A stretch of DNA of 64,000 bases from a virus, in IMG/VR virus record IMGVR_UViG_3300013126_000012, positions 95,587 through 159,586 of that record, one strand, 5' to 3'. Positions 12,035-64,000 of the stretch are shown here, piece after piece. The notes under the pieces were generated by a model that worked only from the letters and a program-made list of their open reading frames with translations, searched no databases and was not told the origin of the DNA. Made by a program: the position numbers and the translations under genes. Each line of letters begins with the position of its first letter. The stretch's first letter is position 1.

Positions 12035-12577
12035 TTACCAATCAATCATTACAAGTTTATTATTCCACACCATCACGTTGTCAGTTTTAAAATCTAAATC
12101 TAATTCTAAATCTGGAATATCTATTTTTTTAATGTCTTGTTGTAATGCTCGTAAAAAATTAATCAATTGAATATTTGTGTCGCGAGCACCATCTGCATCT
12201 AAAAAATCAAATATCGAAACTTCACCGCCTTGCTCTTGCGCATACGTTTTATAATTAGCAATGAATCGATTAACGACTATTTTTTGGTTACTTGATAATT
12301 CCGATGCTTTAGCCATTATATACATGTTATTTCCATCTACATAATATACCGGAATAAAAGTTGTATATCTGCTATAATTATCTACTAATTGTTCAGCAAC
12401 TCGGTATTCTTCTGTTTCTGTAGTTATTTTAAATAATTTATCTTCACCTTCAATTTCGTATACACGTCCATTATCGCCTTGTCCAAACAAAGAAAATTGT
12501 TTATTTTTAATTTTTTGCAAGATTCTGTTTAAATCTTTGCTATCTATTTCTACAAGTAAATTTCGTAAACGTATCAT
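12035..12577 (-). CDS. Protein kinase-like protein with capsid-targeting-like leader
   Basis: A 180-residue protein. Residues 1-10 (MIRLRNLLVE) form an L-x-E leader shared with other cargo candidates. The rest resembles a minimal kinase fold: glycine loop GQGDNGRVY at 32-40, a candidate ATP-binding lysine in LFKIT (Lys50), a candidate helix-C glutamate at 56-57, a catalytic-loop match DLDFKTDN at 160-167 (compare HRDLKPEN), and the metal-binding aspartate in IDW at 178-180 where the chain ends. There is no C-lobe beyond this, so it is either a truncated active kinase or a nucleotide-binding relative. It overlaps the preceding structural gene (TAATG). Confidence 0.65.
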   Translation of the reverse strand: MIRLRNLLVEIDSKDLNRILQKIKNKQFSLFGQGDNGRVYEIEGEDKLFKITTETEEYRVAEQLVDNYSRYTTFIPVYYVDGNNMYIMAKASELSSNQKIVVNRFIANYKTYAQEQGGEVSIFDFLDADGARDTNIQLINFLRALQQDIKKIDIPDLELDLDFKTDNVMVWNNKLVMIDW

Positions 12578-30662: not shown

Positions 30663-30728
30663 ATATGTTTTATTTTATATTATGTAAAATGTTTGAAAAA
30701 TCCAAATTACGTTATTTTTTTTTGCATG

Positions 30729-30736
30729 ATATTTAT
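30729..30736 (+). promoter_or_regulatory. Late-type promoter box (plus strand, cassette unit 1)
   Basis: ATATTTAT read on the plus strand, 20 bp before the ATG at 30756, with AAAAAGG between. It shows that the box is directional: it reads ATATTTAT in the coding sense here and ahead of minus-strand genes. Confidence 0.65.
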
Positions 30737-30755
30737 ATGTAATAAAAAGGACGTA

Positions 30756-31337
30756 ATGAAAAATATTTTATCAGAAAACATGTTGCGTTTCGGAACCAAA
30801 AACTTATCCGAAGCTGCACAACGGCAACTAGTTGTCAAATCAATCATGGAAACCATTAATCAGCATGGATTGCATAACGCCGTACGACGAAGGCTGATGG
30901 AACAGACCGTTAACGAGAATGTAACAACGTACGTTGAAAACTACCGTAAGGCCGTTATAACAGCTTTTCCGAATACGTTTGCCAATGTGGCGGGGAAAAA
31001 CGATGCCACCGGATACATACCGTTTCCCGGAAATAACCCTCAAGAATACATATATGTTTATACAAATGGAGCAGTAACATTGCCTAACGATGCACCAAAA
31101 TTGAAGACCCAGCTACAGAATGTGCACGATAAGGTTGTATTAAATGGCGTTAGCAATAACGATGCAAACTTAAAGAAATATATTGCTAATCTTACGCAAA
31201 ACCAATACCCACCCGAAACTCCACAAGGAATAGCATTAAAATCATTTAATCAACCCAATATTATAGCTATGAACAAGGCATTTTTGGCTTATAAAACATT
31301 TTTGGACAGCCAAAACCCGCCAGCAGCAAGCCAGTAA
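30756..31337 (+). CDS. Cassette protein 1: capsid-targeting-like leader with unique body
   Basis: 193 residues from the ATG at 30756, chosen for its AAAAAGG site and because the leader matches the two paralogues. The leader MKNILSENMLRFGTKNLSEA has L-x-E sites at 5-7 and 17-19 and continues in a second conserved stretch ending RRRLMEQ near 49. The body (50-193) is unlike the others and has no recognised motif. A stretch of 87 bp (30771-30857) is identical to the third unit (33364-33450). A bidirectional terminator follows. Confidence 0.75.
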   Translation: MKNILSENMLRFGTKNLSEAAQRQLVVKSIMETINQHGLHNAVRRRLMEQTVNENVTTYVENYRKAVITAFPNTFANVAGKNDATGYIPFPGNNPQEYIYVYTNGAVTLPNDAPKLKTQLQNVHDKVVLNGVSNNDANLKKYIANLTQNQYPPETPQGIALKSFNQPNIIAMNKAFLAYKTFLDSQNPPAASQ

Positions 31338-31871: not shown

Positions 31872-31927
31872 TTACAATAATATAAAATAAAAGATTAAAA
31901 TCCAAATTACGTTATTTTTTTTGCATG

Positions 31928-31935
31928 ATATTTAT
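31928..31935 (+). promoter_or_regulatory. Late-type promoter box (plus strand, cassette unit 2)
   Basis: ATATTTAT 20 bp before the ATG at 31955. The surrounding 90 bp, from CCAAATTACG through the leader start, is almost identical to the unit-1 promoter. Confidence 0.65.
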
Positions 31936-31954
31936 ATGTAATAAAAAGGACGTA

Positions 31955-32785
31955 ATGAAAAATATTTTATCAGAAAACATGCTGCGGTTTGGAACCAAAA
32001 ATTTATCTGAAGCAACCATACGAAGATTAACTGAAGCTGAAGACCCAATTGATCCGGCAGCAATTGGCTTTCCGAATTGTCCTGCAAAAACTGTGAAAGA
32101 CTTTGTTGATTGGTATATAAAATATCTTACACCATCAACTGGTTGTGTTGGACAAACATTGCTTATCATGAAACCAGAATTTGGATCGTTCAACCTATAT
32201 GAAAAAAATTTGGTTGCAAGTATTGTTGGAAAAGTAACAGTAGCATCTAGTTTTAATTTTTCATATCGATCAGGGAAAACCGATCCTCAAGGTACGACTA
32301 AGGATTCTTCCGTTTTCATATGGGATACTGCAGCAACTAGAAATTATGATTGGGCTAAACAAACAGTAAAAATTAGCGATACTGAAACATACCTCCCGGG
32401 TTTATACAATGTACATGACATGGTGGATGCTACATTATCTTTAGTACCAAATGGTGGGGTTGCCGTGCAGAGCTATTCAATTCCAGTACTTGTTGGTGGT
32501 ACTGATTCTAGTCAGACTATAGACACAGACCCTATATCAAAAAAGAAAGCCGGTACAATAAAAATCACCCAAAACGGAAATGTATCTGGAGCAATATCTG
32601 GAGCACCCATTACGGGTATTTTTCCATGGGTAGATTTATGGACGTTAATGCCAACCAATTTGGACGGATATGGGTTTACCATGGCTGCTGGCGGCATCGA
32701 AGTTCCGATACAAACCGACGCGTCTATGAAAGATTGGATTGCTAAAAACATGAAAAACGGAAAATACATAGGACCAAAAGAATAG
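31955..32785 (+). CDS. Cassette protein 2: capsid-targeting-like leader with unique body
   Basis: 276 residues. It has the same leader MKNILSENMLRFGTKNLSEA as units 1 and 3 but diverges after residue 20, with a further L-x-E site (RRLTEAED, LTE at about 25-27). The body is a globular-looking beta/alpha protein of unknown fold, with a Gly/Ile-rich section around 215-235 and a basic C-terminus. The ATG is set by the AAAAAGG site. It ends 2 bp from the convergent secreted gene with no terminator between. Confidence 0.75.
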   Translation: MKNILSENMLRFGTKNLSEATIRRLTEAEDPIDPAAIGFPNCPAKTVKDFVDWYIKYLTPSTGCVGQTLLIMKPEFGSFNLYEKNLVASIVGKVTVASSFNFSYRSGKTDPQGTTKDSSVFIWDTAATRNYDWAKQTVKISDTETYLPGLYNVHDMVDATLSLVPNGGVAVQSYSIPVLVGGTDSSQTIDTDPISKKKAGTIKITQNGNVSGAISGAPITGIFPWVDLWTLMPTNLDGYGFTMAAGGIEVPIQTDASMKDWIAKNMKNGKYIGPKE

Positions 32786-33348: not shown

Positions 33349-34044
33349 ATGAAAAATTTACTTTCAGAAAACATGTTGCGTTTCGGAACCAAAAACTTAT
33401 CCGAAGCTGCACAACGGCAACTAGTTGTCAAATCAATCATGGAAACCATTGATGAACATGGTTTGCATGGTGCTATTCGTCGACGTTTAATGGAACAACA
33501 GGTACCTGCTGATCCAGCATGGATGACTAAAGCTAAAGACGCATTGGCATCTCAAAATATACAAGACGGTAAAGAAATGTTATCAGTAGGGATAATTAAG
33601 AAAGGATCAACATATGTAAATCCAGAAAATATAGTGGCTTCTGGTGGAATGTCGTTTCCAAGTTCAAACGGATTTTCTGTTGCAGCAAAAGGTGCCACGT
33701 GGTATCCGTCACCAACTAACACAGTGGCATTCTGCTCAGCAATGTTTTTTGCTAATGAAGATATAATACAAAGTTTAATTTCAAAAGATGGGGGATACGA
33801 TCAGGCTAAATTACAACAATTACTTGCCGGAACTTATAAACACAACGGTACCGTTGTTACGGGACAAAAATCTAATATTGTTTGGTATCCATCAATTCCA
33901 TCATATGTGGCAACCGGAGGTGGTAGACTGTATGTTTTTACTGGAGACGGTGATGCTATGAGGACCGCAATGTTGGCACCATATGCAACAAGTCCTGGTA
34001 AGAAAGGTGATGTTCCAGCGGTATATACTCCAAGTGGGCAGTAA
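33349..34044 (+). CDS. Cassette protein 3: capsid-targeting-like leader with unique body
   Basis: 231 residues. The leader (MKNLLSENMLRFGTKNLSEA and on to RRRLMEQQ near 50) is the same as unit 1, and 87 bp of DNA are identical between them. The body (52-231) is different: glycine-rich beta sequence with VWYPSIPSYVATGGGRLYVF near 180. No family is recognised. It ends in front of a strong hairpin terminator. Confidence 0.75.
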   Translation: MKNLLSENMLRFGTKNLSEAAQRQLVVKSIMETIDEHGLHGAIRRRLMEQQVPADPAWMTKAKDALASQNIQDGKEMLSVGIIKKGSTYVNPENIVASGGMSFPSSNGFSVAAKGATWYPSPTNTVAFCSAMFFANEDIIQSLISKDGGYDQAKLQQLLAGTYKHNGTVVTGQKSNIVWYPSIPSYVATGGGRLYVFTGDGDAMRTAMLAPYATSPGKKGDVPAVYTPSGQ

Positions 34045-41282: not shown

Positions 41283-42551
41283 TTATGCTATTTTATTTAG
41301 TATAGATTTTGTATAGTTATCATAGATTTCTTCAGCTGCATCTGCTCTTTTATTTCCAATATGAGCAGGTCGTTCAAACATTTTTGCAAAAGTATATGCA
41401 GCATCCCGAGGATTTGTTTGTAATCGCATTGCTGAAAGCGTCTTTGCTTGATGATGTTTTAATTCCCACCATAAGAATTCCAATTGGCCTTGCATCGAAT
41501 CCCATTTATAACCATTTTTTTCGCACCATTTCTTTAAATTATCGCCATTTTCTTTGTGCCATTGCACAATACCAAAAGATGTTCCAGAATCTCCAACCGC
41601 TTTAGGGTCAAATCCGGACTCAATTTGCATGTTTCCGGCAATTCCAGCTGATTGTGATGTTGATAATCCTTTATTTTTTAAAAATGTCATTACCAATTTG
41701 GCTGCATTTGACTTATTTATTGAACTTGAGCCACCTAATGTATCAAATTTTACATCACCAGCCTTGGTTTTATCGGATTTTGGCGTTAAAACATTTTTAG
41801 TTATCGCAGCAGTTAATATATTTTTAATAATTTTCAATATACTAATTGGTAAATCGTCTTTTTGTTGTCGTTTTTGATAAGTTTTATTTAATTTTTCTAA
41901 AGCATTTTGAGTTAAAGGACCATTAACGCCTTGTTCTATCTCATCACCTAAATCAAAACCAGCTTTTTTTAGTTTTTTCTGTATAGTTTTTAAATCATTA
42001 TCAGATTGCGATATAATATATGCAGCATCTTTAATAAAAGGCCACGGATCAATCGACCCTTTATTATAACCTCGATCGGCATAATACATACTAAAGTGTA
42101 CGTGTGGATGAGTTCCTCGTGCCGAACCAGTGTTTCCGACAGTGCCAATTATCTGCCCAGCTTTAATTGTTTGGCCTGCTTTTACAAATACTCGATCTAA
42201 ATGTGCATGATAATAATTAATGTTACCTTTCTGAATAGTCACCGTACGGCCACCTGCTCCCGAATCTTGCGTAGTAATACTCACAACAGTGCCAGTTACC
42301 GGAGCAACCACAGGCTCACCCCTTTCAGCAAATACATCAATACCTTTATGTCCGCCTCTAGATTTATGTGCAGCATCTCCTGCACCATAATCTGAATTAT
42401 GTACGGCTGTATCTCTTGTTAGCTGTTTAGTTTTGCCAACAAGGCCCGCATCATACCCAATGTTAAAATTTTTAGAACCAATAAAAAAGGTTTCTAATTG
42501 TCCTAAAGTTTGGCCAGATTCAAATTCATTTAATATGTGTTTTAATTTCAT
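41283..42551 (-). CDS. Two-enzyme peptidoglycan hydrolase: M23 peptidase plus lysozyme-like domain
   Basis: 422 residues from the ATG at 42551 (AAGGAAA upstream; the longer start is TTG). The leader MKLKHILNE has LNE at 7-9. M23 endopeptidase: HKGID with His68 and Asp72, HAH at 115-117 and HPHVH at 148-152. A peptidoglycan-binding-like segment follows (188-226). The C-terminal part (280-400) resembles phage tail lysozymes, with a putative catalytic Glu311 in NMQIESGFDP. It would cut both peptide and glycan bonds. The leader suggests packaging or processing rather than a plain endolysin role. Confidence 0.85.
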   Translation of the reverse strand: MKLKHILNEFESGQTLGQLETFFIGSKNFNIGYDAGLVGKTKQLTRDTAVHNSDYGAGDAAHKSRGGHKGIDVFAERGEPVVAPVTGTVVSITTQDSGAGGRTVTIQKGNINYYHAHLDRVFVKAGQTIKAGQIIGTVGNTGSARGTHPHVHFSMYYADRGYNKGSIDPWPFIKDAAYIISQSDNDLKTIQKKLKKAGFDLGDEIEQGVNGPLTQNALEKLNKTYQKRQQKDDLPISILKIIKNILTAAITKNVLTPKSDKTKAGDVKFDTLGGSSSINKSNAAKLVMTFLKNKGLSTSQSAGIAGNMQIESGFDPKAVGDSGTSFGIVQWHKENGDNLKKWCEKNGYKWDSMQGQLEFLWWELKHHQAKTLSAMRLQTNPRDAAYTFAKMFERPAHIGNKRADAAEEIYDNYTKSILNKIA

Positions 42552-42694
42552 TTTCCTTGTCCGCAATACGGTTTAACATAATTCTTGCTTGTTTTGCTAG
42601 AACTATTTTTGCTTTTTGCATGAACTCCTGGACGCTTAACTCGTGGTTTACGTACATGCATGCTCGTAGCGCTAATTTTTGCTTTTGCTGCCAT
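42548..42694 (-). CDS. Small basic protein
   Basis: 48 residues, strongly basic (MHVRKPRVKRPGVHAKSK, then a Ser/Lys run). It resembles small conserved basic proteins of T4-like phages. Its stop overlaps the hydrolase start (ATGA), showing translational coupling. GGAG lies upstream of the ATG. It probably binds nucleic acid. Confidence 0.7.
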   Translation of the reverse strand: MAAKAKISATSMHVRKPRVKRPGVHAKSKNSSSKTSKNYVKPYCGQGK

Positions 42695-53692: not shown

Positions 53693-54943
53693 TTATGCTA
53701 AATTAGATTTGCCTTTGTTGTTTGTAGTATTCGTATCGTTTTTTGCTAACATGTTGATTCGATTAAGCATTGTATTAAGGTCTGGGAAATTATTGAGTGC
53801 CCAACAAGCTAATATCCAATATATATCAGTATGAATTTTTTTTTCTTCTATATAGGGTTTCAACATTGCAACTGTAATATTCTGGCCGGGTTTTAATTTA
53901 AAATGATTACGTACTGCCATTATATTAGACATTTTTTCAGTTGCTCTACATGTATATCCAGGATCTCCTTTGCGACCTGTTAAAGCCCGCTCGCGCCATG
54001 AAATTAACTGATCAGGTGTCGTATCTAATCTTAATGAAGTTATAACAGATTTTGCTTTCAATATATTGGCATTTAACTTTTTATTAGCTGACGAAACTAT
54101 AGTAGCTTTTATGTTATCTGATGTGTCTCGTTTTGTATTTTTTCTAACAAATGCATTTGTTATTTTCTTTTCTGGATTAAGTGGTTTGATAGCATATATG
54201 ATATGTTGTATTTCATGAACTAATGTATCATATTTTGCTGGATCATCAAGTTCTAAATTAACATTTATTACAGTAGATATTCCAACGATTGGGTTGTCTA
54301 CGTATGCATATGCAGTATCCAATCCCGATATAGTGGCAGTAGAATCATAAAATTTAATATACAACTTATCTAACGTATCAAAATATTTTGGCCACACCGT
54401 TTGTATCGATTGAAACTTGCTAGGTAAATACCACGTGTCCCAATTTTGTTGAACTCGTTGTTTTGTTATTGGATCTGACAGCCATGATTTCCAAAAAGCA
54501 ACTGCTTTAGGTAATTCAGTTAACCATTGTTTTTTACGAATATAACGTTCTTTTTTTATTGTTACCGGTTCCATCAAATTCAGTTTAAACTCTTTAAATT
54601 CGGTACCGATAATCTTTTTACTAGTGATATTTTGTGATGCAATACCTATATTGCGTAATGATGCTACTATTTTTTGTACATCAGCAAGATTAAATCGATC
54701 ATATTCTGCATTGATCATCGATGTGAATGTAGTATATCCAGTTTTATTATCTTTAAATTTCAATATGTATTCCAGAAACTCATCTCTGTTACGTAGCAGT
54801 TTGATTGCAGCCAGTACTGCATCCACGTCGGTACCTAATCCTTTAACTGCAGTAACAGTTTGATTATATGCACGTTGTACGCGTTTTTTATCTGTTTGCT
54901 CTTGTAGTGATTGAGCTAACAAAAATTTAAGTTTTATACCCAC
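53693..54943 (-). CDS. HExxH metalloprotease-like protein with capsid-targeting-like leader
   Basis: 416 residues from GTG at 54943. The leader MGIKLKFLLAQSLQEQTDKK has LQE at 13-15. VKGLGTDVDAVLAAI at 33-47 resembles an annexin-type repeat start (KGxGTDExxI). DTLVHEIQHIIYA at 239-251 holds HEIQH (243-247), the zinc-protease motif, preceded by an edge strand typical of that fold. A third zinc ligand is not certain. The late box ends 4 bp before the start, leaving no ribosome site. A packaged protease is the inferred role. Confidence 0.7.
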   Translation of the reverse strand: MGIKLKFLLAQSLQEQTDKKRVQRAYNQTVTAVKGLGTDVDAVLAAIKLLRNRDEFLEYILKFKDNKTGYTTFTSMINAEYDRFNLADVQKIVASLRNIGIASQNITSKKIIGTEFKEFKLNLMEPVTIKKERYIRKKQWLTELPKAVAFWKSWLSDPITKQRVQQNWDTWYLPSKFQSIQTVWPKYFDTLDKLYIKFYDSTATISGLDTAYAYVDNPIVGISTVINVNLELDDPAKYDTLVHEIQHIIYAIKPLNPEKKITNAFVRKNTKRDTSDNIKATIVSSANKKLNANILKAKSVITSLRLDTTPDQLISWRERALTGRKGDPGYTCRATEKMSNIMAVRNHFKLKPGQNITVAMLKPYIEEKKIHTDIYWILACWALNNFPDLNTMLNRINMLAKNDTNTTNNKGKSNLA

Positions 54944-54947
54944 AATA

Positions 54948-54955
54948 ATAAATAT
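54948..54955 (-). promoter_or_regulatory. Late-type promoter box abutting a GTG start
   Basis: Coding-strand ATATTTAT then TATT, then the GTG at 54943. Confidence 0.5.
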
Positions 54956-54964
54956 TCATACAGT

Positions 54965-54994
54965 AAAAAAGTGCCAACGTGATGCTGACACTTT
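54965..54994 (-). terminator. Intrinsic terminator (shared type)
   Basis: AAAGTGTCAGC and GGCACTTT (with G-U pairs) and a TTTTTTACTG run, just after the 128-residue gene. Confidence 0.75.
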
Positions 54995-55003
54995 AATTTG
55001 ATT

Positions 55004-55390
55004 TTATCCTTTAATTTTTTGTACTATCTGCATAAGATAATTGTAACGGAACTTTGAATCATCATATGGTCCAACCAATCCTTTAAATTTGCGAATATTT
55101 GCTTCAAGTTTAGATACTTTATCAATTACTGTATCCGTTGTTGCGGGCACTCGTTGAATGCGATTAATAGCTTGGCTAATCGATTTGTCCCATTCTTTCG
55201 CTTGCATCTTAGGTGTGATGCGTTCGAAGTCTTTATATTCATTATCAAGACTAAAGTTAAATCCACCTATTTCGCGCGCGGAGCTACTCGCAGTTCCACC
55301 AAACACTGGATCTTTCATTACCTGATACGTATCTGGACCCAAGTCTTTGAAGTTTCCTTGTTCTAATAAAATCTTGTGTAAACGTATCAT
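55004..55390 (-). CDS. Packaged-type protein with capsid-targeting-like leader
   Basis: 128 residues. The leader MIRLHKILLEQGNF has LLE at 8-10 and matches MIRLRNLLVE and MIRLKQLLTE elsewhere. The body is helical at the C-terminus (VIDKVSKLEANIRKFKGLV), with a Gly/Ser-rich segment near 30-45. Not recognised. It has its own late box and terminator, so it is a single-gene unit. Confidence 0.65.
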   Translation of the reverse strand: MIRLHKILLEQGNFKDLGPDTYQVMKDPVFGGTASSSAREIGGFNFSLDNEYKDFERITPKMQAKEWDKSISQAINRIQRVPATTDTVIDKVSKLEANIRKFKGLVGPYDDSKFRYNYLMQIVQKIKG

Positions 55391-60047: not shown

Positions 60048-62003
60048 TCATTTGATTGTTTTGATTACTTCACCATTTTCAAATACTTCTATAACGATGC
60101 CGGTAGCATTTTCATCGATGGTTTGTCCTAGCAGATTAGTTCGTCGAGCCACAACGCGTATGCTGGTTTTATTGTTGATTACGATTGGATCAAAAGTTTC
60201 GTAAGCACCATCGGTATCATATTGAGTTAGTCTATAGTAGTTGTATACGGGTTTAACGGCATTGTCTGTAACATCGTAATGAAGCTCTTGAGTCGAATTA
60301 CCGGCTGCAGCAACCGTTCCCAGTTGAGACCATGTAATTCCATTTTCACTTTTTTCTACTACAAAATGTGTCGTGTTGTGTTCCGTAGCAGTTGCCCAAT
60401 AAATAAAGTTGCTTTTGTCTACTGGCTTACCACTGAAGTAAAGCAACTCAATTGGTAAAGCTCCCATTGTTATTATCAGGTACTGCTGGGTTTGAGTATT
60501 GCATCCAGACGCATTGGATACTGTTACACGAACTGCTCCATTTGTTGTTGTTTGTGGCCATGTAAACGTTGTTGTAGGTGAGTTTGAGTTTGGTATGTTA
60601 ACCCATAATGGTGCAGAAACAGTTTGAGTATAAGCCCATACATAACTTGCTCCTATAATCGGAGTGATTGAGTATGTTTCAGCAGTACCAGCAATGATAT
60701 TGTTATTGCCTGATATATTGCTTACTAGAGGTAAACTAGGATTAACGTTTATTGTTGTTGATGTTGATGCATTGCAACCGTTTGATGATACTGTAAGTGC
60801 ATAAGACTGTGTGCTAGTTGGGGATGCCCATGGACTAGGTGCAGAGGTATTAGTTAAATTAACATTTGGTGTCCAAGTGTAGGTTATAGGCGCACCTACT
60901 GGTAATCCCGTTACTGTGCTAACGAGTTGCGTTGAGTTACCTGCACAAATAGGGTTAGAGCTAGGTGTGATACTAACTGATGGTATTGGATTGACTGTTA
61001 TAGTAACTGAAGCACAACCTGCACTGAACTGACTATTGTTATAGTTTCTTACAAAATATGTAGTTGTAACATTGGGTGCAACGGCAATGGAGTTACCAGT
61101 ACCTATAAAAGTTGTACCACATCCTCCCGTATACCAATACGCTGTACCTACTACACCATTTGCATTTAACGTAGTCGATCCACCACTACACAGTGCCATG
61201 ACACTAGCTGATATTGAGGTTGGGTTTGTTGGTGCAGGGGGTGGAGTGCAGCTTCCTGAATAAGTTACATTAATCGTAAAACCATTACCCACAACAGAAC
61301 CATCTGATAGGAATTGAACGGTTAACGGAACTCCTGCAGGTGATGATATATTTGGTATGTTAGAGTTCATCCAATAGGTTCCAATAAGAATTCCACCTGT
61401 TCCGACTCCTTGAAAAATTCTAACTCTATCACAACAAGACTCACCAGACGAAGAACCTGATAGCGAAATAACAGCAGCTCCGCCATTATTCAATACTGTA
61501 TATCCATTTGCGTAGTTTGAGTAACTTCCAAATTGACCTCCATGATCATATAATGTTGTGTTTGTTCCGCAGTTAACGGTATTGAATCCGCTATAAGGAA
61601 CAAGCGTTCCTCCACCTCCTCCACCTCCGCCTCCGCCACATTGCGCAGTTCCAATTGAACCACTTGAAGTTGATGTACCTGTTAGAAGAGTTTGTAGTGG
61701 TATGACTGTGGCTCCTGTGCTGCTTGTTACACGTATTCGACACTCACTAGACCAACTACCAGTTGTAGAACGCCATACTCGAATTGTTTGTCCAGCTGTC
61801 GCACTAAAGGTAACAGTTGCTGGTCCGTATCCGCTACTCAGCGTTACATTAGATACTACAATAACTCCGTTTACTGACACAGATGCGCGGTTACCCGTCC
61901 AACCATCTCCATATGTGTCAGTCATATGTAATGTATGTATACAAGATTGAGAAAATGAGATTGCTGATAACAACAATATAAATGCAAGTAATAGTTTCTT
62001 CAT
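60048..62003 (-). CDS. T9SS-type surface protein with CUB-like domain (type A sorting domain)
   Basis: 651 residues. The signal peptide MKKLLLAFILLLSAISFSQ is Bacteroidota-like. Residues about 20-130 are a beta domain with a run of ten glycines after it; about 150-255 resembles a CUB domain (CGTNTTLYDHGGQFGSYSN, GESCCDRVRIFQG, VPLTVQFLSDGSV). Several Ig/PKD-like units follow. The last 100 residues look like a type A T9SS sorting domain (LYFSGKPVDKSNFIYWATA; end RTNLLGQTIDENATGIVIEV). It should be exported through the host type IX system to the cell surface. A phage late box drives it. Confidence 0.75.
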   Translation of the reverse strand: MKKLLLAFILLLSAISFSQSCIHTLHMTDTYGDGWTGNRASVSVNGVIVVSNVTLSSGYGPATVTFSATAGQTIRVWRSTTGSWSSECRIRVTSSTGATVIPLQTLLTGTSTSSGSIGTAQCGGGGGGGGGGTLVPYSGFNTVNCGTNTTLYDHGGQFGSYSNYANGYTVLNNGGAAVISLSGSSSGESCCDRVRIFQGVGTGGILIGTYWMNSNIPNISSPAGVPLTVQFLSDGSVVGNGFTINVTYSGSCTPPPAPTNPTSISASVMALCSGGSTTLNANGVVGTAYWYTGGCGTTFIGTGNSIAVAPNVTTTYFVRNYNNSQFSAGCASVTITVNPIPSVSITPSSNPICAGNSTQLVSTVTGLPVGAPITYTWTPNVNLTNTSAPSPWASPTSTQSYALTVSSNGCNASTSTTINVNPSLPLVSNISGNNNIIAGTAETYSITPIIGASYVWAYTQTVSAPLWVNIPNSNSPTTTFTWPQTTTNGAVRVTVSNASGCNTQTQQYLIITMGALPIELLYFSGKPVDKSNFIYWATATEHNTTHFVVEKSENGITWSQLGTVAAAGNSTQELHYDVTDNAVKPVYNYYRLTQYDTDGAYETFDPIVINNKTSIRVVARRTNLLGQTIDENATGIVIEVFENGEVIKTIK

Positions 62004-62078: not shown

Positions 62079-62086
62079 ATAAATAT
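62079..62086 (-). promoter_or_regulatory. Late-type promoter box
   Basis: Coding-strand ATATTTAT followed by AATTGA, 76 bp before the ATG at 62003. A GGCCGGCCCATGG segment lies between. It ties the T9SS gene to the phage transcription programme. Confidence 0.5.
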
Positions 62087-64000
62087 CAACGAATCATCGT
62101 TATATGACCAGTAACAGTATATTTTGCATCTGTATTTTTATCACCAAACCAAATCTTATATGTATATACGCCATCTGCACATAATGCATTGTTATATGTA
62201 CCATCCCAAGCTGCTTCTGCCCAATAAGATTCCCATACCATTTCTCCCCAACGATTGAATACCGTTAAATGAAATTCTGCAGGATCGAAGCCTGAGGTAA
62301 ACACCGGCCGCCATGTTTGATTGTGTTGGTTACCATCTGGCGTAAATGTATTTGGTACATAATACAACATCTGCGGACAACGAGATACCGTTACCGTTGT
62401 GGTTGTAGGTTCTGAAACACATCCATCGACTGTATGCGTTGCTTGTATCACATACATTCCGGCATTGTTCCATGATACTGTTAGTGTCGGAGATTGTGTC
62501 GCGTTGCCTAACAACGTCCATTCTGTTATGCCTGGTGCAGTTACTGTAGCTACATATATTGATGATACAGAGTCACCTTCACAAATTTGTATGAATTCAT
62601 CATTTGGAGTAATTGCTAATACTTCAGGCTGTGGATATACTGTTACGGTTGTGTAAGATGTAAATGCACAATTGCTCTGTGTATATGTATATGATATGCT
62701 ATTTGTTCCAATTGCATTGGTTGGGTCTAACGTATTACCAGTAACACCCAAACCAGCAAACACGCCACCTGCAGGAGTTGCTGTGAGTGTTGCATTTGCA
62801 TCATATACGCAAAATGGACCAACCACATCAATTGTTGGAACGATATTTAATATGAACACATTAACCGTAACGGGTGCACTTAGGCAACCAAACTGATTTG
62901 CTGCTACTACTTGAACGGCTCCGCCTACTAATCCTGCGTTTAATGCACTCCAATCTACCGTGATGGCACTTGTTCCTTGCCCCGATGTAATCGTCCCTGG
63001 CGTTGTCCACGCGTATGTATAACCCGGTTGCGTTGGCACCGAATATGTTGCAGCAGTCTCTCCTAAGCATACGGTATCAAGTGATGCAATAGGACCAGTA
63101 ATTACTGGAGGCGGATCAATCAACGTGATGGTGTTAGATGATGTACATCCATTGGCATCAGTCACCACTACAGCATATGTACCTTGACACAACGTTGTAG
63201 CTGTTTGAGTAATTTGTCCATTGCTCCAAGCATAAGTATACGGAGCTACGCCATCAACCGGATTAGCAGTTGCAGTACCATTACAATCTCCAACACATAC
63301 GGGATTGGTTGAAGTTATCAGCGGATCTTGTAGTGGGGCTGGATCGATCAATGTAGCAGATGTAGTTATGTTGCAACCATTGATATCGGAAACGGTTACT
63401 GTATATGTTCCTGCACAAAGACCTGTTAATGAATTTGTTGTTTGACCCGTTGTCCATGTATACGTATAAGGTGCAGTACCATTAGTTGGAGTAACAACTA
63501 AAGTACCATCGCACGCAGCATTACATAATGGATCTGTTATAACAAAGTTAGGTTGATTGAGTACTGGAGGACCTGGTACTACTTGCACCGTATCTGGACC
63601 TAAGCCTACTCCTGCATTACATGTTGACCATCCTGCATTGCAAGCCGGATACTCTAGATGACAAGTATAATAAGCTCCACCGGCTGGAGGTGTAACTGTT
63701 ATTTGATTTACACCAGTTGCAATTGGGATTGGATTTCCTACTTGATACCATACTAAAGTTGGTAGCACAGCAGCACCGTTAGGAGTGTATCTTCTAGCAT
63801 CTTGCTGAGCAGTCCATTGAGTTGAATTCCTTCCAGGAACTGTTACTGCTTGTGTTCCTGTTGCATTGTGAATCCCTTGCACTGCAGTGCCTCCCGCCCA
63901 TTGCAGGCAGTTTGGTTTAACGGCAATGTGGTTTTCAATGTAATTAGTTGATTCATAAATTACTATATGGAAAGTACCTTGTGTACTAGTACACAAAAAC
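62086..64000 (-). CDS. Large SprB-like adhesin with gliding-motility C-terminal domain (5' end outside window)
   Basis: The frame is open to the window edge: 638 visible residues, no start. The visible N-terminal part (GTFHIVIYESTNYIENHIAV, then CLQWAGGTAVQGIHN) is typical of giant secreted proteins of gliding Bacteroidota. SprB-like repeats follow: NPVCVGDCNGTATANPVDGV, then APYTYAWSNG and TYAVVVTDANGC. The last 90 residues (YVPNTFTPDGNQHNQTWRP, FNRWGEMVWES, DGVYTYKIWF) form a type B T9SS/CHU-type sorting domain. It is likely exported and attached to the cell surface. Confidence 0.85.
   Translation of the reverse strand, partial: FLCTSTQGTFHIVIYESTNYIENHIAVKPNCLQWAGGTAVQGIHNATGTQAVTVPGRNSTQWTAQQDARRYTPNGAAVLPTLVWYQVGNPIPIATGVNQITVTPPAGGAYYTCHLEYPACNAGWSTCNAGVGLGPDTVQVVPGPPVLNQPNFVITDPLCNAACDGTLVVTPTNGTAPYTYTWTTGQTTNSLTGLCAGTYTVTVSDINGCNITTSATLIDPAPLQDPLITSTNPVCVGDCNGTATANPVDGVAPYTYAWSNGQITQTATTLCQGTYAVVVTDANGCTSSNTITLIDPPPVITGPIASLDTVCLGETAATYSVPTQPGYTYAWTTPGTITSGQGTSAITVDWSALNAGLVGGAVQVVAANQFGCLSAPVTVNVFILNIVPTIDVVGPFCVYDANATLTATPAGGVFAGLGVTGNTLDPTNAIGTNSISYTYTQSNCAFTSYTTVTVYPQPEVLAITPNDEFIQICEGDSVSSIYVATVTAPGITEWTLLGNATQSPTLTVSWNNAGMYVIQATHTVDGCVSEPTTTTVTVSRCPQMLYYVPNTFTPDGNQHNQTWRPVFTSGFDPAEFHLTVFNRWGEMVWESYWAEAAWDGTYNNALCADGVYTYKIWFGDKNTDAKYTVTGHITMIR

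What the first reader, a model, noticed from the sequence alone, without database searches (positions are those of the whole stretch)
53693..54943. HExxH protease-like protein with packaging-type leader and annexin-like segment
Seen: HEIQH at 243-247 after an edge strand, an L-x-E leader, and GLGTDVDAVLAAI resembling an annexin repeat start. Inference: a metalloprotease carried in the capsid could attack host proteins on entry, or be active in virion maturation. The annexin-like match is short and may be chance.
Basis: partly seen in the sequence, partly recalled or inferred. Interest (0 to 1): 0.6.

Follow-up and report, generated by a model that had tools for sequence, protein, structure and literature searches.

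The report
Phage cargo metalloprotease with annexin-like module
A T4-like virus of aquatic Bacteroidota probably packs a zinc protease into its head, behind a cleavable loading tag and a single annexin-like module, so that the enzyme can enter the host with the viral DNA; the layout resembles effectors loaded into phage-tail-like injection machines.

Summary
HEIQH (243-247) is real and invariant in a previously unnamed family found at 21 IMG/VR loci. It was not detected in 50,697 cultured-phage records or GTDB contigs. A second motif, E336...R345, is also invariant and supplies the likely third zinc ligand. A 17-sequence AlphaFold model of the catalytic domain (pTM 0.79) matches zincins almost exclusively. 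Its best viral matches are crassvirus proteins; the top one is the virion protein phi14:2 gp081, which carries a crassvirus cargo-1 domain.

The leader is real: 15 of 15 members end it with [L/I]-x-E-[Q/D] (shuffles: mean 0.8, maximum 5), several leader types are swapped between members, and the genome encodes a T4 gp21-type protease, whose known motif is L/I-X-E. The gene shares an upstream element with structural genes. The annexin resemblance is not chance: five-helix model, annexin Z 8.5, and profile matches to annexins that vanish when the profile is reversed. It is one repeat, present in only part of the family and also in a lysozyme.

Best reading: packaged, ejected gluzincin cargo. Virion location, activity and target are unproven.

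The parts
53693..54943 (-). Gene for the 416-aa leader / annexin-like / zincin protein (GTG start)
   Evidence: ORF. Start supported by alignment with homologues starting MIRLKHILEQ and by the element ATATTTAT 12 nt upstream, the same spacing as at other leader genes.
54948..54955 (-). ATATTTAT element 12 nt upstream of the start, shared with head/tail and leader genes; putative late promoter element
   Evidence: 37 of 66 occurrences in the genome precede an ORF of 80 aa or more by 10-45 nt. Head-tail/baseplate genes 17/52 versus glycosylation/replication genes 3/43, Fisher p=0.002. Promoter role is inference.
54968..54994 (-). Terminator-like hairpin between the upstream leader gene and this gene
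   Evidence: weak, one found and 1.0 expected by chance.
54899..54943 (-). Residues 1-15, putative capsid-targeting leader ending L-Q-E (cleavage predicted after E15)
   Evidence: 15/15 members have [LI]xE[QD] at the leader end. S77/gp21-type protease in the genome. T4 gp21 motif L/I-X-E (PMC9026906).
54644..54892 (-). Residues 18-100, annexin-repeat-like five-helix module (G35-L-G-T-D39, invariant E80)
   Evidence: Alignment A7. Model helices 2-33, 40-48, 53-65, 73-79, 86-98. Annexin A4 Z 8.5, 2.5 A over 73 residues. Profile match to annexins, absent for the reversed profile.
53732..54592 (-). Residues 118-404, zincin catalytic domain
   Evidence: AlphaFold model m6307e032fcec, pLDDT 78.7, pTM 0.79. 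Zincins fill nearly the whole list of PDB matches.
54257..54259 (-). N229 of the edge strand (I-x-V-N), invariant
54203..54217 (-). HEIQH, residues 243-247, active-site helix (two zinc-ligand His, catalytic Glu)
   Evidence: Invariant in 17/17.
53909..53938 (-). E336...R345 (EKMSNIMAVR), glutamate helix, proposed third zinc ligand E336
   Evidence: E336 and R345 invariant in 17/17; helix 217-230 of the domain model contains it.
55004..55390 (-). Upstream neighbour gene with a leader of the same type (MIRLHKILLEQ), 128 aa, function unknown
   Evidence: ORF; same upstream element; no Pfam match.

Best explanation
The gene makes a head-cargo zinc metallopeptidase of a T4-like phage. SHOWN: the N-terminal leader with an L/I-x-E end, the annexin-like module, a conserved zincin-type domain with HEIQH and an invariant downstream Glu, and a gp21-type prohead protease in the same genome. 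INFERRED: the first 15 residues take the protein into the prohead core during late infection; the prohead protease cuts after E15; the mature enzyme is enclosed with the DNA and leaves with it into the host envelope or cytoplasm. There E244 activates water on a zinc ion held by H243, H247 and E336 and cleaves a host protein or another ejected protein. The annexin-like module, present only in part of the family and also attached to a phage lysozyme, acts as an accessory adaptor, most likely at the membrane or cell envelope, and is not needed for catalysis.
For: HEIQH, E336 and R345 are invariant down to about 21% identity. The domain model has zincin order (backing helix, strands, HExxH helix, Glu helix) and nearly all of its PDB rows are zincins. 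All 15 members carry [LI]xE[QD] leader ends, and leader types are exchanged: MIRLK..LLE, ITESQ...LLEQ, LTESDL..IVKRVIME, MNLNENI.R.KE.MG. The S77 prohead protease is in G000 and in 7 of 12 relative records; the five without it are contigs of 18-107 kb. The late-type element is shared with sheath, tube and baseplate genes. A distantly homologous zincin domain sits in MS/MS-proven virion proteins of cultured Cellulophaga phages: phi14:2 gp081 (Foldseek E 2.3e-4; hhalign E 8.4e-6; control 0.73) and phi4:1 gp041 (E 1.1e-6). gp081 also carries Pfam crAss_CARG1. In T4 the first 10 residues of IPIII suffice for packaging, and fused foreign proteins are delivered to the host (PMC9026906).
Against: No virion proteomics for this phage and no enzyme assay. 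Leader cleavage is not shown. Fold Z-scores for the zincin domain are modest (best 6.8), and zincin-like folds can carry other chemistry: one row is an HExxH oxygenase domain. Sequence search alone finds no named family above a cut-off. The crassvirus cargo domain itself is absent here, so the loading route would differ from that of gp081.
Confidence: 0.6

Rival explanations
1. Envelope-penetration enzyme: the packaged protease works in the periplasm during ejection, next to cargo lysozymes, opening the wall or trimming envelope or ejection proteins, rather than attacking cytoplasmic host targets.
For: The homologous zincin domain is fused to a phage tail lysozyme in virion protein phi4:1 gp041. 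The annexin-like module is fused to a Phage_lysozyme domain behind a leader in relative G003. G000 has a leader-bearing M23 plus tail-lysozyme protein (window 41283-42566).
Against: No lysozyme domain in this protein. Position in the particle unknown. Leader proteins of these phages have very diverse bodies, which fits general cargo.
Confidence: 0.25
2. Virion-maturation protease: it cleaves structural or scaffold proteins inside the prohead.
For: Late-type upstream element and packaging-type leader. A conserved zincin of unknown function was proposed for such a role in group 1 jumbo phages (PMC7824862).
Against: All relative records of 160 kb or more have their own S77 protease. The gene is sporadic, not detected in cultured phages including the close relative immuto, occurs in three tandem copies in one phage, and sits at different places in related genomes.
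Confidence: 0.12
3. Autoprocessing or inactive zincin: the domain cuts its own polypeptide or serves as a structural cargo domain without proteolysis.
For: Autoprocessing is proposed for zincin domains of polyvalent proteins (PMC5512222). Some HExxH domains have other activities (8s5f row).
Against: Only one enzymatic domain here, so there is little to release. The catalytic set is strictly conserved.
Confidence: 0.1
4. Ordinary intracellular late protein; the leader resemblance is coincidental or serves another purpose such as a degron or RNA-level signal.
For: No experimental proof of leader function in this phage group.
Against: 15/15 leader ends against a shuffle maximum of 5. Leaders recur in front of unrelated domains. 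Matching gp21-type protease.
Confidence: 0.08

Closest known systems
Phage T4 internal proteins and Alt with capsid-targeting sequences cleaved by gp21 (PMC9026906)
   Same: Short N-terminal leader ending L/I-x-E, gp21-type protease in the genome, T4-like head genes.
   Different: Body is a zincin with an annexin-like module, not a known IP or ADP-ribosyltransferase. Packaging not demonstrated.
Virion proteins phi14:2 gp081 (crassvirus cargo-1 domain) and phi4:1 gp041 (tail lysozyme) of Cellulophaga phages
   Same: Homologous zincin domain with HExxH, a downstream Glu, and RK.LN.KPG.
   Different: HEFTH instead of HEIQH, a second HExxH segment, no annexin-like module, different delivery domain. 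I found no published zincin annotation for them: none in the crAss001 structure paper, and the records say only structural or tail protein.
Single annexin domain plus lethal-factor-like metallopeptidase effectors of PVC-type (eCIS) secretion systems (PMC3482391)
   Same: One annexin-like repeat in front of a zincin, delivered by a phage-derived particle; the authors propose that the annexin helps breach target membranes.
   Different: Those are bacterial tail-like particles. No sequence comparison was made here, so common ancestry is untested.
Zincin-like MPTase domains of phage polyvalent proteins (PMC5512222)
   Same: Head-packaged or injected zincin with HExxH and Glu on a later helix.
   Different: Those are large multidomain proteins; this one is a 416-aa single-enzyme protein with no PolyVal Pfam match.
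M13 peptidases (Zmp1, PepO) and the minigluzincin selecase
   Same: Best solved-structure matches to the catalytic model (Z 6.8, 6.3, 5.5).
   Different: Very low identity (11-15%) and partial coverage; a fold is shared, membership is not shown.

Membership tests
Zincin metallopeptidases | HExxH on the active-site helix | tested here: met
   HEIQH invariant in 17/17; helix 120-135 of the domain model.
Zincin metallopeptidases | Zincin fold | tested here: met
   Nearly all of the 50 listed VIA-align rows are zincins, best Z 6.8 over 156 residues; each Z alone is modest.
Zincin metallopeptidases | Zinc binding and proteolysis | not testable with these tools
   Needs protein.
Gluzincins | Glu on a downstream helix as third ligand | tested here: met
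   E336 invariant in 17/17, on helix 217-230 of the domain model. Ligand distance could not be measured because coordinates are not exposed.
M13 peptidases | Recognised M13 sequence signature (named Pfam or NCBIfam model) | tested here: not met
   No such model hit even at E 10 (Pfam) or E 1 (NCBIfam).
T4-type capsid-targeted cargo | N-terminal leader ending at an L/I-x-E site | tested here: met
   15/15 members.
T4-type capsid-targeted cargo | gp21/S77 prohead protease in the same genome | tested here: met
   E 2.8e-34.
T4-type capsid-targeted cargo | Cleaved protein present in the virion | not testable with these tools
   Needs mass spectrometry.
Annexin | Repeat of about 70 residues with five helices | tested here: met
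   Five helices, 2.5-3.0 A over 73-77 residues to annexin repeats.
Annexin | GxGT loop plus acidic residue about 38 positions on (type II calcium site) | tested here: inconclusive
   G-x-G-T-D and invariant E80 present, but 41 residues lie between, not 38, and two rows have WMGTD. Spacing rule from own knowledge.
Annexin | Four repeats and Pfam PF00191 match | tested here: not met
   One repeat only; no PF00191 hit at E 10.
Polyvalent proteins (MPTase-PolyVal) | PolyVal/LPD Pfam domains in a multidomain protein | tested here: not met
   No such Pfam hit for any of 15 members.
Crassvirus cargo protein 1 | CARG1 domain PF25725 | tested here: not met
   No PF25725 hit in the family; present in phi14:2 gp081.
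PVC/eCIS annexin-metallopeptidase effectors | Sequence homology to those effectors | not tested
   Effector sequences were not fetched; only the published description was read.

The most novel reading that the evidence does not exclude
T4-like phages carry head-loaded effectors built like those of eCIS particles: loading leader, single annexin repeat, zincin. In this reading the annexin-like module mediates a membrane step during delivery, and leader swapping makes the cargo set a fast-changing arsenal, including tandem protease copies, against Bacteroidota hosts.
Probability: 0.3. Interest if true: 0.82.

Novelty: new variant of a known kind. Interest (0 to 1): 0.64.

Why it matters
Few phage-injected proteases are characterised. 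This family gives a recognisable leader code ([LI]xE[QD]) with which cargo of T4-like Bacteroidota phages could be listed from sequence. It links that cargo to zincin domains already seen by mass spectrometry in Cellulophaga phage virions but, as far as I found, not described as proteases. It also shows an annexin-repeat-like module in phage cargo, in the same order (annexin then metallopeptidase) as reported for eCIS effectors, so the question of what a single annexin repeat does in a delivered protein becomes testable in a phage.

Tried and rejected
Direct database identification failed: Pfam, PHROGs, NCBIfam, PDB by sequence and cultured phages gave nothing over a cut-off, though the sub-threshold hits include DUF6782 metallopeptidase in four members, SprT-like, M91 and phrog_87 metallo-protease. 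Two genome-contig scans found no relative; these scans need an exact short motif, so absence is not proof. Further viral scans with other first sequences added no new members. The first full-length model (pLDDT 63.5, pTM 0.37) was too weak for the catalytic half and was supplemented by a domain model. Foldseek alone on PDB gave no significant hit. The annexin-like module was sought in cultured phages by tblastn without a match. A maturation-only role was considered and ranked low. T4-type TATAAATA in the window is at chance level; the enriched motif is ATATTTAT on the coding strand. hhalign to crassvirus cr114_1 gp053 (TAG read as Gln) reached only E 0.008, so that link stays a lead. A text search for the leader string LTESDL found no paper.

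Full report
SETTING. The window is bases 95587-159586 of a 159,586-base virus record. Its terminase is closest to Microcystis phage Mel-JY01 (58.7%) and Flavobacterium phage immuto (53.5%). The record encodes a T4 gp21-type prohead protease (Peptidase_S77, E 2.8e-34), so it is a T4-like phage, probably of an aquatic Bacteroidota host (host is inference).

THE GENE. The ORF is 54943-53693 on the minus strand, 416 aa, GTG start. The GTG is supported by homologues that begin MIRLKHILEQ at the same place and by the element ATATTTAT 12 nt upstream, the same spacing as at other leader genes.

FAMILY. Relatives were found at 21 IMG/VR loci, several of them from the same or near-identical phages, down to about 21% identity, and as three tandem copies in one phage. 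Searches of 50,697 cultured-phage records and GTDB contigs found none; the GTDB scan depends on exact short motifs. In 17 aligned catalytic domains the invariant residues are A147, P158, N229, HEIQH 243-247, E336 and R345.

CATALYTIC DOMAIN. A model of residues 118-416 from those 17 sequences has pLDDT 78.7 and pTM 0.79: long backing helix, three strands, HEIQH helix, then a helix carrying E336. In VIA-align nearly every one of the 50 rows is a zincin: M13 Zmp1 and PepO, selecase, lethal-factor-fold and PPEP peptidases, MMPs and SPRTN, with Z 4.1-6.8. Each value is modest; the consistency is the evidence. E336 as the third ligand makes it gluzincin-like (distance not measured).

LINK TO KNOWN VIRION PROTEINS. 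The best match in the viral structure library is a structural protein of Cellulophaga phage phi14:2 (E 2.3e-4, probability 1.00). That entry is 593 aa long; two adjacent-region phi14:2 proteins have that length, and gp081 is the one that holds HExxH, so I take it to be the match. hhalign aligns HEIQH to HEFTH and E336 to a Glu followed by RKHLNVKPG (E 8.4e-6), while the other 593-aa protein gives 0.73. gp081 is annotated from MS/MS of virions and carries the Pfam crassvirus cargo-1 domain. phi4:1 gp041, also MS/MS-proven, joins a tail lysozyme to the same zincin. The crAss001 structure paper describes cargo protein 1 as packaged and probably ejected and does not mention a peptidase.

LEADER. 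T4 gp21 cuts after L/I-X-E, and ten residues of the IPIII leader suffice for packaging (PMC9026906). All 15 distinct members end their leader with [LI]xE[QD]; shuffled leaders give 0.79 on average and never more than 5. The leaders belong to several types that recur in front of unrelated neighbours in the same genomes. In G000, 22 of 175 ORFs have hhxE at positions 8-16 against 7.4 expected and a maximum of 18 in 2000 shuffles, and this count misses genes whose start was called too far upstream. The element ATATTTAT precedes 37 ORFs, mostly sheath, tube, baseplate, capsid-region and leader genes, this one included. Late co-expression is inference.

ANNEXIN-LIKE MODULE. Residues 18-100 form an 83-residue module conserved in 8 sequences, with invariant GTD, TGY and EY among others. 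The model has five helices, and annexin repeats align over 73-77 residues at 2.5-3.0 A with Z up to 8.5; helical bundles can reach such Z by arrangement alone. The profile finds annexins in the PDB (best E 1.8e-4, spread over weak repeats; some designed helical proteins also match), whereas the reversed profile finds none and nothing below 0.23. There is no Pfam annexin hit. The module is missing from the shorter family members and is also found in other leader proteins: a lysozyme of G003 (305-aa open frame, partial match, E 0.003) and a protein of G006/G007 (299-aa open frame, E 1.2e-7). It is therefore a detachable accessory module resembling one annexin repeat; it is not an annexin.

MECHANISM. 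Most likely the protein is loaded into the prohead by its leader, trimmed after E15, packed with DNA and ejected into the host, where the gluzincin cleaves a protein target. Sequence, fold model and protease partner are shown by computation; packaging, trimming, ejection, zinc and target are inferred. Action in the envelope alongside cargo lysozymes is the main rival. A maturation role is less likely, given sporadic occurrence, tandem copies and the resident S77 protease.

COMPARISON. It works like T4 internal proteins in delivery and like zincins in catalysis. Zhang et al. 2012 describe single annexin domains followed by a lethal-factor-like metallopeptidase in PVC-SS effectors and suggest the annexin helps breach target membranes (PMC3482391). 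The order of parts is the same here; ancestry was not tested. Head-packaged zincins are also known in polyvalent proteins (PMC5512222), but no PolyVal domain is present. Hence: new variant of a known kind.

Noticed in passing
G000-wide; e.g. just upstream of the minus-strand genes starting at window 2378, 5108, 22277, 25171: ATATTTATA(T/A)-like element 10-45 nt upstream of head, tail and leader genes (37 ORFs), a likely late promoter or start signal that differs from T4 TATAAATA on the coding strand.
   Followed up: partly
12035-12577 (-): Leader MIRLRNLLVE followed by a kinase-like order of motifs (GQGDNGRVYEI, K, DLDFKTDNVMV, MIDW); a possible packaged protein kinase. Pfam and PDB sequence searches did not confirm it.
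   Followed up: partly
30693-31337, 31925-32785, 33349-34044 (+): Three plus-strand genes share the leader MKN(I/L)LSENMLRFGTKNLSEA but have different bodies.
   Followed up: no
41283-42566 (-): Leader MKLKHILNEF plus peptidase M23 plus phage tail lysozyme: apparently a cell-wall enzyme with a packaging-type leader.
   Followed up: partly
L003/L008 1110-4716 (G002): Three tandem zincin paralogues: two with the ITESQ-type leader and annexin-like module, one with the NNISQEEKN-type leader and no module.
   Followed up: partly
L119 1913-2812 (crassvirus cr114_1 gp053): With TAG read as Gln, a protein two genes after the portal gene has HEQAH and TEVYSRLMNFR, a possible zincin relative.
   Followed up: partly
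60048-62003 and 62086-63996 (-): Host-like secreted repeat proteins at the end of the phage record: a signal-peptide-like start in the first, and what looks like a gliding/type-IX-secretion sorting region at the C-terminus of the second.
   Followed up: no
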